Positions 27,787 through 34,058 of a DNA stretch of 64,000 bases are shown here, in pieces. This DNA comes from Iodidimonas sp. SYSU 1G8 (lineage in GTDB: Bacteria > Pseudomonadota > Alphaproteobacteria > SMXS01), in assembly GCF_039655775.1 (NCBI RefSeq), contig NZ_JBBYXJ010000001.1, positions 1,759,501-1,823,500 of the forward strand, written 5' to 3'. Each line of letters starts with the position of its first letter. Position 1 is the stretch's first letter. The translations under genes were made by a program, and so were the position numbers. The notes beneath the pieces were generated by a model, which was given only the letters and a program-made list of their open reading frames with translations, made no database searches and was not told the DNA's origin.

Positions 27787-28548
27787 TCAAAGCCCTCCGG
27801 TGACCGGCAGGATCTGGCCCGTGACCCAGCCGGACGCGGGCGAGCCTAGGTAAACAACGGCGGCGCCGATATCCGACGGCGTGCCGAAACGGCCCGCCGG
27901 AATGTTCACTTTCTCGAGCAGGCCGGGCAGACCCGACTCGTCGATGCCCAAGGCGTTCATCACAACCTCGGTCGGAATCCACGCCGGTTCGATGGCATTA
28001 ACGCGAATGCGCGGCGCCAACTCGCGCGCGAAGGTCTCGGTCAGACTGTTCACGGCGGCCTTGGCCGCGCCGTAATGCCCGCTGCCGGGCACCGGTCCCC
28101 GCGCCGCGCGCGAGGAAATGTTGATGACCGCGCCGCCATCCTGCATGCGCTTGACCGCCGCGACCGTGCCGGCCCAGACGGCGGTCAGGTTGACGTCCAT
28201 GCAGTGCCGCCAGGCATCGGGCGACGCGCCCGTCAGCGGCCCCATATAGGTCGAGCCGCCCGCGTTGTTCACCCAGATGTTCAGGCCGCCGAACGTATCG
28301 ATCGCTGCCTTGGCGAGCGCATCGAGCGCATCGCTGTCGGTGACATCTGTCGGCACGGCGATCGCCTTGCCGCCCTTGGCGACGATATCGGCGGCGACGG
28401 CATCGATGTCGTCCTTGCGCCGCGCGGCGAGCACCACCGCCGCGCCCGCTTCGGACAGGGCGTGAGCGATCCCCTCGCCGATGCCCCGGCCGCCGCCGGT
28501 GATGACCGCCACCTGTCCGTCGAGCCGGTACTGATCGAGGATGCTCAT
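27787..28548 (-). CDS. Short-chain dehydrogenase/reductase, second of a tandem pair
   Basis: A 253-residue classical SDR with TGGGRGIGEG cofactor motif, NNAG, NISSRAARG and HYGAAK catalytic residues, and 'GWVTGQILPVTGG' at the end. The ATG at 28548 overlaps the stop of the upstream SDR by one base (TGATG). Its N-terminus (LDQYRLDGQVAVITGGGRG) is nearly identical to that of the upstream SDR and similarity continues to the C-terminus, so the pair arose by tandem duplication. It lies 20 bp before RidA. The reaction is unknown; similarity is to 3-oxoacyl-ACP reductase-like and gluconate dehydrogenase-like SDRs. Confidence 0.88.
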   Translation of the reverse strand: MSILDQYRLDGQVAVITGGGRGIGEGIAHALSEAGAAVVLAARRKDDIDAVAADIVAKGGKAIAVPTDVTDSDALDALAKAAIDTFGGLNIWVNNAGGSTYMGPLTGASPDAWRHCMDVNLTAVWAGTVAAVKRMQDGGAVINISSRAARGPVPGSGHYGAAKAAVNSLTETFARELAPRIRVNAIEPAWIPTEVVMNALGIDESGLPGLLEKVNIPAGRFGTPSDIGAAVVYLGSPASGWVTGQILPVTGGL

Positions 28549-29312
28549 CAATGACCTCCGGTCACGGGCAGCATCTGCCCGGTCACCCAGCCCGAGGCAG
28601 GCGAGCACAGATAGACGACGGCGGCGCCGATATCCTGCGGCCTGCCGAAGGTGCCCATGGGAATGGCGAGCTGTTTGGCCAACGCCGGCAAGCCGGCTTC
28701 GTCGGCCACGCCCAGCGCCGCCATCATCACCTCGGTCGGGATGTAGCCCGGCATGATGGCGTTGACCCTGATCTTCGGCGCCAGTTCACGGGCGAAGGTT
28801 TCGGTCAGACTGTTCACGGCGGCCTTGGCGGCGCCGTAGTGGCCGCTCCCCGGGATCGGCCCGCGCGCCACCAGCGACGAGATATTGACGATCGAGCCGC
28901 CCTCGCTCATGCGCTTTACGGCAGCCAGCGTCGCCGCCCAGACGGCGGTGATATTCAAGTCGATACAGTCCTGCCAGTCCTGCGGCGACAATTCGGTCAG
29001 CGGCCCCATGGCGCGCGATCCGCCGGCATTGTTCACCAGGATGCTCAGCGTGCCGAATTCGTCGACCGCCGCCTGCGCCAGCGCCTCGAGCGCCTGCGAG
29101 TTGGTCACGTCGGTGGGCACCGCCAGCGCCTTGCCGCCCTTGGTCCTGATGTCGGCCGCCACCTTTTCCACCTCGGCGCCGCGCCGCGCGGCGACCACGA
29201 CCGCCGCGCCCGCATCAGACAGCGCATGCGCGATTCCCTCGCCGAGACCGCGTCCACCGCCAGTGACGACGGCAACCTGGCCATCCAGCCGATACTGGTC
29301 CAGAACTCCCAT
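28548..29312 (-). CDS. Short-chain dehydrogenase/reductase, first of a tandem pair
   Basis: A 254-residue classical SDR with TGGGRGLGEG, NNAGGSRAMG, NISSLVARG and HYGAAKAAV motifs. Two ATG codons lie at 29318 and 29312; GGGGAG directly abuts the first and sits six bases from the second, and the second also aligns with the start of the neighbouring paralogue, so 29312 is chosen. It probably leads a three-gene transcript SDR-SDR-RidA. The gene duplicated next to it differs mainly in surface loops. Confidence 0.88.
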   Translation of the reverse strand: MGVLDQYRLDGQVAVVTGGGRGLGEGIAHALSDAGAAVVVAARRGAEVEKVAADIRTKGGKALAVPTDVTNSQALEALAQAAVDEFGTLSILVNNAGGSRAMGPLTELSPQDWQDCIDLNITAVWAATLAAVKRMSEGGSIVNISSLVARGPIPGSGHYGAAKAAVNSLTETFARELAPKIRVNAIMPGYIPTEVMMAALGVADEAGLPALAKQLAIPMGTFGRPQDIGAAVVYLCSPASGWVTGQMLPVTGGH

Positions 29313-29449
29313 AAGCATCTCCCCGTTTTCCCCGAGTCAGCTTAGCACAATGCCGGCGGCGGCCACCCGAAAACGCCCGCCGATGGGAAATGGCGCCGCG
29401 GCACCGTATATCCTGTCGGGAGGGGTGCTCGCGAACGGGAGAGAACACC

Positions 29450-31778: not shown

Positions 31779-32558
31779 TCAGTAGATCGTGTAGGCGCCG
31801 TCGATCACCAGCGTGTCGCCGGTGTGATAGCGCGACGCGTTCGAGGCCAGATACACCGCGATGGCCGAGAAATCCTCGCCATCGGCCCAGCCGCCGGTCG
31901 GCACGCGGCTGATGACGTTCTCGTTGAACTTGTCCCACGCCTGCGCACCGGCGGTCATTTCCGACCGGACCCAGCCGGGACAGATGCTGTTGACGCTGAT
32001 CCTGTGGCGCGCCAACTCGACCGCCATGGCGCGGCACATGGTCACCACCGCCCCCTTGGTCGCCGCGTAGTGCTCGTTGCGCGCCGCGCCGTGGATCGCC
32101 GCGGTCGAGGCGATGCCGACCAGCGAACCGCCGCCATCGCCCGCCTTGTGCCGTTCGATCATCGAGCGCGCCGCCTCGCGCAGGGTGAACAGCACGCCGT
32201 GAAGGTTGATCCCTTCCATCTTCTGGAAGTCCTCGAGCGAGATGTCGAACAGATCCTTGCGGCGGATCGATATCCCCGCATTGGCGATGGCCTGGTCGAT
32301 GCGGCCGAACTCCTTGAGGATGTCGGCCATGCCGGCCTTGACCGCGGCCTCGTCGGAGACATCGACGACGGCGGCGCGCACCTCGCCGCCATGCGCCTTC
32401 AGCCGTTCGACGGCGCGGGCGTTCTTTTCCGCGTTGGTGCCCCAGATCACCACGCTCGCGCCGTGCATGGCGAGGCCCTCGGCCATGCCGATACCGATGC
32501 CGCCATTGCCGCCGGTAACCAGCGCCACCTTGCCCGTCAGGTCGAACAGATTTTTCAC
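31779..32558 (-). CDS. Short-chain dehydrogenase/reductase
   Basis: A 259-residue classical SDR with TGGNGGIGIG, NAGIS, 'GIASTAAIHG' with catalytic Ser and HYAATKGAV with Tyr and Lys. Start GTG at 32558 is preferred because GGGAGG lies at ideal distance; the ATG at 32573 overlaps that binding site. The C-terminus ends in 'GDTLVIDGAYTIY'. Followed after one base by the hotdog thioesterase, so the two enzymes may act on the same CoA-linked substrate. Confidence 0.88.
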   Translation of the reverse strand: MKNLFDLTGKVALVTGGNGGIGIGMAEGLAMHGASVVIWGTNAEKNARAVERLKAHGGEVRAAVVDVSDEAAVKAGMADILKEFGRIDQAIANAGISIRRKDLFDISLEDFQKMEGINLHGVLFTLREAARSMIERHKAGDGGGSLVGIASTAAIHGAARNEHYAATKGAVVTMCRAMAVELARHRISVNSICPGWVRSEMTAGAQAWDKFNENVISRVPTGGWADGEDFSAIAVYLASNASRYHTGDTLVIDGAYTIY

Positions 32559-32622
32559 CCATGCCTCCCGCATTTCCGTTTTCGGCGGGAACGCTAGACC
32601 GGATCGGTGGACGGGAAAAGCC

Positions 32623-33774
32623 TCAAAGCGTCGGAGCAGCGGCCAGCGTGAGGCGCAGGATGATGAACTCAGACGGTTTGACGGGCGCGAAACCGATCAT
32701 CAGGCGAACACGGCCCTGCGCCAGTTCCACCTCGCTCGTCGTTTGCCGGCCGCACTGGGTGAACCACGCATCCTTGGGCGCGGCGCCCACCAGCGCCCCA
32801 TCACGCCAGTACGACTCCATGAAGCCATCGACCGTCTCGCGGATCGCCGCCCACAACGGTTCGTCATTCGGCTCGAACACGGTCCAGGCGAGACCCCGCT
32901 CCAGCGAACGTTCCAGATAGAGCGCGGCGCGGCGCACCGGCACGTAACGCCACTCCGAATTCGCCGACAGCGTCCGCGCGCCCCAGACGAGCGGTCCAGC
33001 CGTCCCCATGACCCGAATGACATTGATCGCCTGCGGGGTCAGACGCTCCTGCTCCGCCGTGCTCACTGTCACGTCGAGCGCGGCGCCGACGATGGTCGCC
33101 CCCGGCCCGGCCGGGGTTTTCCATACACCGCGCTCGCTGTCGGCGCGCGCGATGATGCCGGCCACGCTTCCCGATGCGCCGACCTCGTGGCCATCGGGCA
33201 GCTTCAGGCGCGGATAATAGAAGGCGGCGTTCGGCGACCGAACCTCCGCCAGCGCCGCGAGCCAGGTCCCCAGCGCATCGAGCCCCACGACCCCGGTCGG
33301 CGTGTCCACCAGCAGCAAAGCGCGCCGCGCCGTGCACACCGCCAGTGCCGCGCCATACAGCGCGATGCCGCGATCGGGCACATGGACGGCGTCCGGCAGG
33401 CACAGCAGGTCGAAATCCTCGGGCGTATCCATCAGCACCCGCAACCCATCCTCGATCGACGCGGCCGAATTGCTCGGCACGCGCACCAGGATGGCCTTGG
33501 TGCCGCCATTGAGGAAAAATTGCAGCACCGCGCGCGGCGCCTCGCCCAGGCCGTGGGCGCCGCCATAATCCCGTTCGAATTCGAACAGGCTGGAAATGTT
33601 GAGGGCCCGGCCCGAGGGACCCAGCGCGAAGGCGCCGACAAAGGCCGCGACGCCCGTCTCCACCCCGTTGATCGACCGCGCCTGCACCTGTATTTCCGGC
33701 ACGTAAACACCCGGCCGGGACGATACCGACCGGGTCATCGACCGCATCCAGCGAACCACCTGCTTCAGAGCCAT
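32623..33774 (-). CDS. Phage tail sheath family protein, solitary
   Basis: A 383-residue protein (374 from the alternative ATG at 33747, which has AGGTGG eight bases upstream, whereas 33774 has no binding site). It matches contractile tail sheaths throughout: 'SSRPGVYVPEI' and AAFVGAFALGPSGRALNISS at the N-terminus, PNAAFYYPRLKL and SVAGIIARADSERGVWKTPA in the middle, and at the C-terminus ERSLERGLAWTVFEPNDEPLW, 'SYWRDGALVGAAPKDAWF' and RVRLMIGFAPVKPSEFIILR. That is the full-length pattern of small sheaths such as R-type pyocins. No tube, baseplate, spike, ATPase or other tail gene is in the window. A 19-bp palindrome lies just upstream. Confidence 0.88.
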   Translation of the reverse strand: MALKQVVRWMRSMTRSVSSRPGVYVPEIQVQARSINGVETGVAAFVGAFALGPSGRALNISSLFEFERDYGGAHGLGEAPRAVLQFFLNGGTKAILVRVPSNSAASIEDGLRVLMDTPEDFDLLCLPDAVHVPDRGIALYGAALAVCTARRALLLVDTPTGVVGLDALGTWLAALAEVRSPNAAFYYPRLKLPDGHEVGASGSVAGIIARADSERGVWKTPAGPGATIVGAALDVTVSTAEQERLTPQAINVIRVMGTAGPLVWGARTLSANSEWRYVPVRRAALYLERSLERGLAWTVFEPNDEPLWAAIRETVDGFMESYWRDGALVGAAPKDAWFTQCGRQTTSEVELAQGRVRLMIGFAPVKPSEFIILRLTLAAAPTL

Positions 33775-33785
33775 GCGCGAGATTT

Positions 33786-33804
33786 AATCGCCACTGTGGC
33801 GATT
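33786..33804. promoter_or_regulatory. 19-bp perfect palindrome before the tail sheath gene
   Basis: AATCGCCACTGTGGCGATT: two 9-base arms around a single T, in the gap between the small gene at 33843 and the sheath gene. Such a tight odd-length dyad is typical of the operator of a dimeric repressor; as RNA it could form an 8-bp stem with a 3-base loop 12 bases before the first possible start codon. No T-run follows on the minus strand, so it is not a terminator for the upstream gene. Confidence 0.55.
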
Positions 33805-33842: not shown

Positions 33843-34058
33843 TCACGGCCGCATGAAAGTGAAATCCGTATCCGGATCGATGTTCTCGGCCACGAACTGC
33901 AACTCGCTGGCGATGTCGTCATAGCTTCGGGTCAGGCGATAAATCCGCACCACGTGATCGAGCAGGGTGCGGCCAAGAATGTCGCTCGGAACGCCGGCGG
34001 CGGCGGCCTCCTCGAGCATGGCGGCGACGTGGCGGGCGGCGATTTCCTTGTGCGGCAT
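33843..34058 (-). CDS. Small conserved-looking protein of unknown function
   Basis: A 71-residue acidic, largely helical protein starting MPHKEIAARHVAAMLEEAAAAG and ending DPDTDFTFMRP. The ATG at 34058 has GGAGAA 11 bases upstream; a longer frame to 34118 is less likely. I do not recognise the family. It contains no membrane segment or signal peptide. It is upstream of, and on the same strand as, the orphan tail sheath gene, 68 bp away with the palindrome between, so it could be part of the same unit. Confidence 0.55.
   Translation of the reverse strand: MPHKEIAARHVAAMLEEAAAAGVPSDILGRTLLDHVVRIYRLTRSYDDIASELQFVAENIDPDTDFTFMRP

What the first reader, a model, noticed from the sequence alone, without database searches (positions are those of the whole stretch)
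32623..33774. Orphan contractile tail sheath gene among core metabolic genes
The protein matches tail sheaths from N- to C-terminus, yet no tube, baseplate, spike, ATPase, holin or integrase gene is anywhere in the 64 kb. Its flanks are ordinary (SDR, glycine-zipper protein, tRNA-Glu 1 kb away). All reading frames seem intact, so it is not an obvious decayed prophage. It may be a remnant, or a sheath reused for another assembly, or part of a contractile system whose other genes lie elsewhere.
Basis: partly seen in the sequence, partly recalled or inferred. Interest (0 to 1): 0.62.

Follow-up and report, generated by a model that had tools for sequence, protein, structure and literature searches.

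The report
Conserved sheath gene without its machine
A bacterial chromosome keeps one intact gene for the contractile sheath of a phage-tail-like injection machine although the rest of the machine was not found, and relatives keep it under selection too, which suggests the sheath protein has been given another, still unknown job.

Summary
32623-33774(-) encodes a complete 383-aa sheath protomer, closest in sequence to sheaths of extracellular contractile injection systems (eCIS). The genome (2 contigs, 100% complete) holds one sheath and no match to the eCIS tube, baseplate-J or gp25 families. It is not a recent remnant: four of six other genus members have the gene at the same place, directly upstream of the same SDR gene, without stops, with dN/dS 0.15-0.19 in the closest trio; two of the four also carry a separate eCIS cluster. 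The sister genus lacks it at that place. Tubeless relatives recur elsewhere; in Achromobacter one locus holds a tube-bearing eCIS segment in two examined species and a shortened sheath alone in six. In four of five genus copies (not clearly the window's) the inter-subunit 'handshake' arms are eroded while the body is kept; in four of five a new amphipathic N-terminal helix is invariant. Best reading: an eCIS sheath body retained for a tube-independent role, not a working contractile sheath. Membrane attachment and interference with phage-tail assembly are untested proposals. I found no description of such genes in the papers searched.

The parts
32623..33774 (-). orphan eCIS-type sheath gene, 383 aa
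   Evidence: AlphaFold model mean pLDDT 92.2; fold match Z up to 37.7
33730..33774 (-). residues 1-15, N-terminal amphipathic cationic helix (MALKQVVRWMRSMTR); in most tube-linked sheaths of the set a Met lies only a few residues before PGVY, so this looks like an addition
   Evidence: identical in 4 of 5 genus copies with only synonymous codon differences (4, 5 and 5 against the window, 0 nonsynonymous); hydrophobic moment 0.76, shuffle p 0.003; helix 2-12 in the model at low pLDDT, block means 55-62
33661..33723 (-). residues 18-38, N-terminal arm (handshake strand); PGVYVPEI kept in the window copy, eroded or deleted in the other four genus copies
   Evidence: columns counted from residue 20; arm role from passages of PMC5807055 and PMC8894135
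32677..33660 (-). residues 39-366, sheath body
   Evidence: superposes on extended-state eCIS sheaths at about 2 A; 104 of 147 columns conserved in tube-linked sheaths kept (core counted as residues 39-370)
32635..32664 (-). residues 371-380, C-terminal arm strand; 1 of 5 conserved columns kept
   Evidence: predicted strand 371-378
31779..32573 (-). SDR gene directly downstream, same strand, about 50 bp gap; syntenic marker in all five sheath-bearing genomes of the genus
33843..34055 (-). small protein (70 aa from the ATG at 34055) upstream; adjacent to the SDR gene without a sheath in the sister genus, so it belongs to the ancestral neighbourhood rather than to the sheath
33786..33804 (-). 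19-bp perfect palindrome AATCGCCACAGTGGCGATT, 11 bp before the start codon; possible control site
   Evidence: read from sequence; function untested

Best explanation
This is the sheath gene of an extracellular contractile injection system that has outlived its machine and been kept for a tube-independent job. SHOWN: the protein is a full sheath protomer by sequence and predicted fold; no tube, baseplate-J or gp25 partner was found in this genome; the gene is inherited at one locus across most of the genus under purifying selection; sheaths of this lineage lie in a group of tubeless sheaths; in four of five genus copies the arms that interlock sheath subunits have lost their consensus while the body keeps its; in four of five an N-terminal amphipathic basic helix is invariant. 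INFERRED: the protein no longer builds a contractile sheath; it works as a free or weakly associated protomer, probably held at the inner face of the membrane by the N-terminal helix, using the conserved sheath body as a binding surface. The partner is unknown.
For: Sheath identity and fold. Single sheath and no tube, baseplate-J or gp25 in G000; same in G003 and G005 (both estimated 100% complete) that keep the sheath. Synteny in G002, G003, G005, G006 and the arrangement without sheath in sister genus G007. Selection: trio G002/G003/G005 NG86 dN/dS 0.154-0.187 (ML 0.062-0.094), against 0.090-0.109 (ML 0.030-0.036) for the neighbouring SDR gene. Tubeless sheaths cluster: 16 of 91 rows, 4 changes against 15.0 shuffled; 16 of 47 rows, 5 against 13.5, with the window in an all-tubeless group of 9 at 87/99 support. 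Arm erosion: p 5e-4, 1.9e-3, 1.4e-5, 4.3e-4 in L029-L032, not seen at p<0.01 in 43 of 45 tube-linked rows outside the reference set nor in 4 of 4 size-matched plasmid eCIS sheaths. Armless G006 copy still predicted to fold (pLDDT 91.7). N-terminal helix. Parallel in Achromobacter.
Against: The window's own copy keeps PGVYVPEI and its arm loss is not significant (p 0.12), like tube-linked sheaths of equal divergence. The G006 N-terminus is not amphipathic (p 0.5), so a membrane anchor is not universal even within the genus. Model confidence over residues 1-30 is low. Two of six other genus members lack the gene (G001, 98% complete, has the locus without it; G004, 78% complete, lacks the SDR marker too and is uninformative), so it is not essential. 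It is less constrained than its neighbour; wider genus pairs give NG86 dN/dS 0.27-0.59 with dS near saturation, and Achromobacter short forms (0.14-0.29) are less constrained than the long, tube-linked forms (0.03-0.09). By fold alone phage sheaths score as high as eCIS ones (Z about 35). No expression, binding or phenotype data.
Confidence: 0.5

Rival explanations
1. Poison subunit against contractile-tailed phages (or foreign tail-like machines): the sheath body docks onto growing tails in the infected cell, and its missing or weakened arms stop the sheath from propagating.
For: Body conserved, handshake arms eroded in 4 of 5 genus copies and, separately, the N-arm missing in G352. In AlgoCIS the cap protein ends sheath assembly through a mimicked handshake (PMC8894135, passages). 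Interference with phage tail assembly is a recently discovered defence strategy, although the example (Rta) is a small unrelated protein whose escape mutations lie in the phage tape measure (PMC12987554, passages). Patchy presence in the genus.
Against: Phage sheaths in the phage collection are distant: the 12 rows listed of 175 matching records have 23-28% identity, best E 8e-16, so co-assembly is doubtful. No defence genes were looked for nearby. The window copy keeps its N-arm motif.
Confidence: 0.15
2. Sheath-only polymer: the protein still self-assembles into a tubeless sheath (like T4 polysheath) used as a cytoskeletal or storage filament.
For: Complete sheath fold; the window copy keeps PGVYVPEI. 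Polysheath formation without a tube is recalled, not from a call.
Against: Arms eroded in the other four genus copies; N-arm missing in G006 and G352.
Confidence: 0.12
3. Slowly decaying remnant of an eCIS with no present function.
For: No partner genes found; looser constraint than the neighbour and, in Achromobacter, than tube-linked long forms; arms eroded; absent in G001. In Achromobacter the locus was probably once a larger eCIS.
Against: No stops in five species although dS is large; dN/dS 0.15-0.19 NG86 in the closest trio; N-terminal 15 codons with only synonymous differences in four species.
Confidence: 0.13
4. Active component of a contractile machine whose other genes lie elsewhere in the genome.
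For: G002 and G006 carry an eCIS cluster besides the orphan.
Against: Those clusters have their own sheath, about 43% identical over the C-terminal half only; G000, G003 and G005 have no tube, baseplate-J or gp25 match.
Confidence: 0.04
5. Accidental single-gene insertion carried along with the SDR operon (hitch-hiker), with selection only on not being toxic.
For: About 50-bp gap to the SDR gene on the same strand; the sister genus has the neighbours without it.
Against: The pattern of constraint inside the protein (conserved body, invariant N-terminal helix in four species) is not explained by mere tolerance.
Confidence: 0.06

Closest known systems
eCIS/CIS sheath proteins (Streptomyces coelicolor CIS 8bky/8bl4/9gts, AlgoCIS 7adz/7ae0, PVC Pvc2 6j0b/6j0c, AFP Afp2 6rbn/6rc8, Halogeometricum CIS 9ezm)
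   Same: Sequence; body fold, Z 28-38, about 2 A for extended-state structures and 4-5 A for contracted ones; short form like Pvc2/Afp2.
   Different: No tube, baseplate-J or gp25 match in the genome; N-terminal helix; arms weakened in the orthologues.
Short sheath of Achromobacter spp.
   Same: Sheath alone in the six loci examined; no PF06841 tube genome-wide in the two genomes tested; purifying selection.
   Different: Different gene neighbourhood and a separate place in the tree; arms mostly kept (p 0.2 and 0.037); a tube-bearing counterpart survives at the same locus in other species.
Phage contractile tail sheaths (T4 gp18, cyanophage A-1(L)) and R-type pyocin sheath
   Same: Fold of the body, with Z as high as for eCIS sheaths; PHROG sheath profiles match strongly.
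   Different: Weaker match to the individual solved sequences, E 1e-9 to 2e-8, and to phage records, best E 8e-16.
Short-sheath eCIS-like clusters on plasmids (Paracoccus, Rhodovulum, Deinococcus, Treponema)
   Same: Sheath of 384-404 aa, similar divergence.
   Different: Tail and baseplate genes annotated directly beside it; arms not preferentially eroded.

Membership tests
contractile sheath superfamily (PF04984/PF17482) | profile match to the sheath families | tested here: met
   PF17482 46.2 bits above cut-off; PF04984 29.2 bits, slightly below its 31.4 cut-off
contractile sheath superfamily (PF04984/PF17482) | sheath body fold | tested here: met
   pLDDT 92.2; body on eCIS sheaths, Z up to 37.7, rmsd 2.0
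contractile sheath superfamily (PF04984/PF17482) | N- and C-terminal handshake arms | tested here: inconclusive
   window: 9 of 14 N-arm and 1 of 5 C-arm conserved columns kept, p 0.12; other four genus copies significantly eroded
contractile sheath superfamily (PF04984/PF17482) | polymerisation and contraction | not testable with these tools
   needs purified protein and electron microscopy
extracellular contractile injection system (eCIS) | cluster of core genes (the survey PMC8213781 required at least ten; passages) | tested here: not met
   only the sheath found in the window and genome
extracellular contractile injection system (eCIS) | tail tube (Phage_T4_gp19) | tested here: not met
   0 matches in G000 at E<=10; the same family is found in G002 and G006
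contractile-tailed prophage | tube (gp19 type), baseplate J, gp25 | tested here: not met
   P2-type tube family not searched
contractile-tailed prophage | integrase, head, terminase, lysis genes nearby | not tested
   no dedicated search; the flanking genes read are ordinary metabolic genes
type VI secretion system | TssE/gp25-like protein | tested here: not met
   PF04965 absent in G000; TssB/TssC not searched separately

The most novel reading that the evidence does not exclude
Sheath-only genes are a recurrent class: several bacterial lineages have shed the injection machine but kept the sheath protomer, often trimmed of its decoration domain and of its linking arms, as a stand-alone protein with its own selected function (in this genus with an added membrane-binding helix), possibly blocking assembly of contractile tails.
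Probability: 0.4. Interest if true: 0.8.

Novelty: new variant of a known kind. Interest (0 to 1): 0.58.

Why it matters
Sheath proteins are known as structural parts of a large machine. A sheath gene that is selectively kept without tube or baseplate would mean the protomer itself can do something useful. The in-place comparison in Achromobacter (tube-bearing eCIS segment in some species, sheath alone in others, same neighbour) offers a natural experiment on how a contractile weapon is dismantled and one part is kept. It also warns that a lone sheath annotation is not evidence of a prophage or an injection system, and the published eCIS survey that I checked would have filtered such loci out by requiring at least ten core genes (PMC8213781, passages).

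Tried and rejected
Prophage remnant beside other phage genes: no gp19-type tube, baseplate-J or gp25 match in the genome. Small upstream protein 33843-34055 as a sheath partner: next to the sheath in 3 of 5 loci but beside the SDR gene without any sheath in the sister genus, so dropped. Length alone as the mark of orphans: rejected, because four plasmid clusters have equally short sheaths with tail genes beside them. All tubeless sheaths as one clade: not supported; 4-5 changes are needed and 0% of bootstrap trees have one. Promoter scan gave nothing on the coding strand.

Results against the reading, and weak points: 5 of 15 tubeless rows tested show no arm erosion at p<0.01 (window, L042, L044 at 0.037, L045, G249). 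Of 45 tube-linked rows outside the reference set 2 do (L047, whose frame is cut at the contig end; L070, a tube-linked gene whose frame starts after the arm, cause unknown) and 2 more are near 0.05 (L107, L114). My note called L047 and L070 both contig-edge cases; for L070 that was wrong. The genus rows are related, so their p values are not independent, and a divergent N-terminus is hard to align. Rows left out: L039/L040 (the G002 and G006 loci again) from the trees; L051, L072, L101 from the arm test; L051 and L101 from the second tree; L177 (one of ten short Achromobacter rows) from the Achromobacter tree, missed by my motif filter. L051's contig ends just after the sheath, so its local tubelessness says nothing. 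L045 carries an inserted domain (706-residue open frame). Long branches (G249, L048, L041, L046, G352, L032) make tree places unsure. Tubelessness of genomes depends on completeness that the call does not state; G100 (Agromyces) has a tube match elsewhere (E 3e-9), so it is not tubeless genome-wide although labelled tubeless in the trees. In one search at most five first-look candidates per genome were scored. In the class sample G024, G278 (weak, perhaps phage) and G183 also lacked PF06841 and were not resolved. YN00 dN/dS failed for most diverged pairs, and pairs with ML dS above 3 are saturated. The non-tube probes are weak: they found only sheath and tube even in the tube-bearing Achromobacter loci.

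Papers: nothing on stand-alone sheath genes surfaced in searches (open-licence PMC only; listings capped). Passages were read in PMC9230969, PMC8213781, PMC12987554, PMC5807055, PMC8894135, PMC10598620; the others only as listings.

Full report
CHECK OF THE OBSERVATION. The gene is at 32623-33774 on the minus strand, ATG to stop, 383 aa. It is a sheath protein by Pfam (Phage_sheath_1C above cut-off, Phage_sheath_1 slightly below), by PHROGs and by comparison with solved structures, where the best relatives in sequence are sheaths of cellular contractile injection systems. The flanks are as described. Eight other proteins from a relative's eCIS cluster and a tube HMM find nothing in the window. 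GC and third-position GC of the gene (0.683, 0.83) are in the range of its neighbours, at the low side for GC3.

WHOLE GENOME. The window lies in a 3.92-Mb genome in two contigs, 100% complete. It has one sheath and no match to the tube family PF06841, to Baseplate_J or to gp25. The same searches do ring in two of the seven genus genomes, G002 and G006, which carry an eCIS cluster with its own sheath (492-codon open frame), two tubes, gp25 and baseplate-J; further genes there (spike, LysM, Pvc16-like) carry my labels from order and size, not from a family search. So the searches work, and the absence in G000, G003 and G005 is informative.

CONSERVATION AND SYNTENY. Of six other genomes in the genus, four (G002, G003, G005, G006) have an orthologue (64, 62, 61, 49% identity), each directly upstream of the same SDR gene with a conserved downstream order. 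G001 (98% complete) has the locus but no sheath; G004 is only 78% complete and lacks the SDR marker too, so it is uninformative. In sister genus G007 the small gene and the SDR gene are neighbours without a sheath. The simplest account is that a single sheath gene was gained at this place within the genus and then inherited. The order held in the collection has only ten genomes in three genera, and only this genus carries the orphan.

SELECTION. In the closest trio dN/dS is 0.154-0.187 by NG86 and 0.062-0.094 by ML; the neighbouring SDR gene has 0.090-0.109 and 0.030-0.036. Pairs with the window give 0.27-0.32 by NG86 (0.49 with G006), and the other pairs with G006 0.47-0.59, with dS near saturation. 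No stop lies in any copy. The first 15 codons are identical in protein in four species, with 4, 5 and 5 synonymous and no nonsynonymous codon differences between the window and the other three. This is a gene under constraint, looser than its neighbour.

WHAT IS CONSTRAINED. Against columns conserved in at least 85% of 28 tube-linked sheaths, the five genus copies keep 102-108 of 147 body columns. Arm columns (14 in the N-arm, 5 in the C-arm) are kept 10 of 19 in the window copy and 4-6 of 19 in the other four. The difference is significant in those four and not in the window (p 0.12). In G006 most of the N-arm is deleted. Among 45 tube-linked rows not used for the reference, two show the same bias at p<0.01, one a frame cut at a contig end and one an incomplete gene, and two more are near 0.05; four plasmid eCIS sheaths of the same size and similar divergence show none. 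Published structures describe such arms as the handshake that links subunits (PMC5807055, PMC8894135; passages). AlphaFold gives a confident body for the window protein (pLDDT 92.2) and for the armless G006 copy (91.7); the body superposes on extended-state eCIS sheaths at about 2 A, but phage sheaths score as high, so fold alone does not tell the two apart. The N-terminal helix is cationic and amphipathic in the window (shuffle p 0.003), not in G006, and modelled at low confidence.

HOW GENERAL IT IS. Leaving aside L039 and L040, which are the G002 and G006 loci already described, 11 of the other 77 have no tube nearby: L041, L042, L044, L045, L046, L048, L049, L051, L054, L072, L101 (L051's contig ends at the sheath). 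In 10 of the 11 genomes behind them no PF06841 tube was found anywhere; the exception is Agromyces (L046). Several are metagenome bins. Tubeless sheaths are clustered on the tree but need 4-5 changes, so they probably arose several times. The window lies in an all-tubeless group of nine (87/99; several long branches). In an even sample of 385 alphaproteobacterial genomes, 18 have such a sheath at E<=1e-20, three of them from the window's genus; of the other 15, ten have a tube. Of the five without, G249 and G352 look like further orphans (G352 lacks the N-arm), G024 and G278 are weak and perhaps phage, and G183 is unresolved.

A NATURAL EXPERIMENT. In Achromobacter, 16 of 43 genomes have a relative: ten short forms (nine measured, 371-392 aa) and six long forms of 760 aa. 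In the eight regions examined the divergent gene next door is the same (77-86% identity to the L042 copy; that it encodes a TonB-type receptor is my guess). Two of the six long-form loci were examined and both continue with a tube; in one of them an AAA protein was identified further along. Six of the ten short-form loci were examined and show a sheath and no tube. Nine short forms make one group (97/91) beside the long forms, with dN/dS 0.14-0.29 among the closer pairs, against 0.03-0.09 among the long forms. The likely direction is loss of the machine and of the decoration domain with retention of the sheath, but gain in the other direction is not formally excluded.

INTERPRETATION. A passive remnant and a split machine are both disfavoured for this genus. 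The pattern (body kept, arms let go, N-terminal helix kept) is what one expects of a protomer used for something other than a contractile sheath. The membrane-tethered protomer is my working mechanism and is inference. A poison subunit for contractile tails is attractive because an armless body could cap a growing sheath, and interference with tail assembly is a recent defence idea (PMC12987554, passages), but phage sheaths in the collection are only 23-28% identical in the 12 rows listed of 175. The window copy itself keeps the N-arm motif, which weakens any claim about this particular protein.

NOVELTY. I found no description of stand-alone sheath genes in the open-licence papers searched. 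The protein is a member of a known superfamily; its tube-independent retention is a new variant.

Noticed in passing
window 27787-29318 (-): Two tandem SDR genes about 75% alike; the pair is also present in G001, G002, G003 and G005, while G006 and sister genus G007 show a single copy in the stretches fetched.
   Followed up: no
window 33843-34055 (-): Small conserved protein without a significant Pfam match, beside the SDR gene in the sister genus and next to the sheath in 3 of 5 genus loci; not found at that place in G002 and G005.
   Followed up: partly
window 33786-33804: 19-bp perfect palindrome 11 bp before the sheath start; G005 has a shorter CGCCA-TGT-TGGCG palindrome at the like place, G002 and G003 only half of it.
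   Followed up: partly
L192, L193 versus L042, L044, L194-L197 (Achromobacter): Same locus holds a long sheath followed by a tube in some species and a short sheath alone in others, next to the same gene.
   Followed up: partly
L166 6893-8050 (+), genome G352: Another alphaproteobacterial genome (estimated 100% complete) with a lone sheath gene whose N-terminal arm is missing and no PF06841 tube.
   Followed up: partly
L049 4622-6512 and L072 2814-4713 (Nitrospira): Tubeless sheath followed in both by a conserved gene starting MIIRRMNFSRTHYFSGRLL; possibly a partial eCIS.
   Followed up: no
L070 4605-6410 (+): Tube-linked sheath gene whose frame starts after the N-terminal arm; no PGVY motif in any forward frame in the 400 bp upstream. 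Truncated gene or assembly error.
   Followed up: partly
genome G006, C33:35964-36266 (-); genome G002, C1:202521-202931 (+): A gp25-family gene (G006) and a third tube-family match (G002, E 4e-22) away from their eCIS clusters; perhaps other contractile elements.
   Followed up: no
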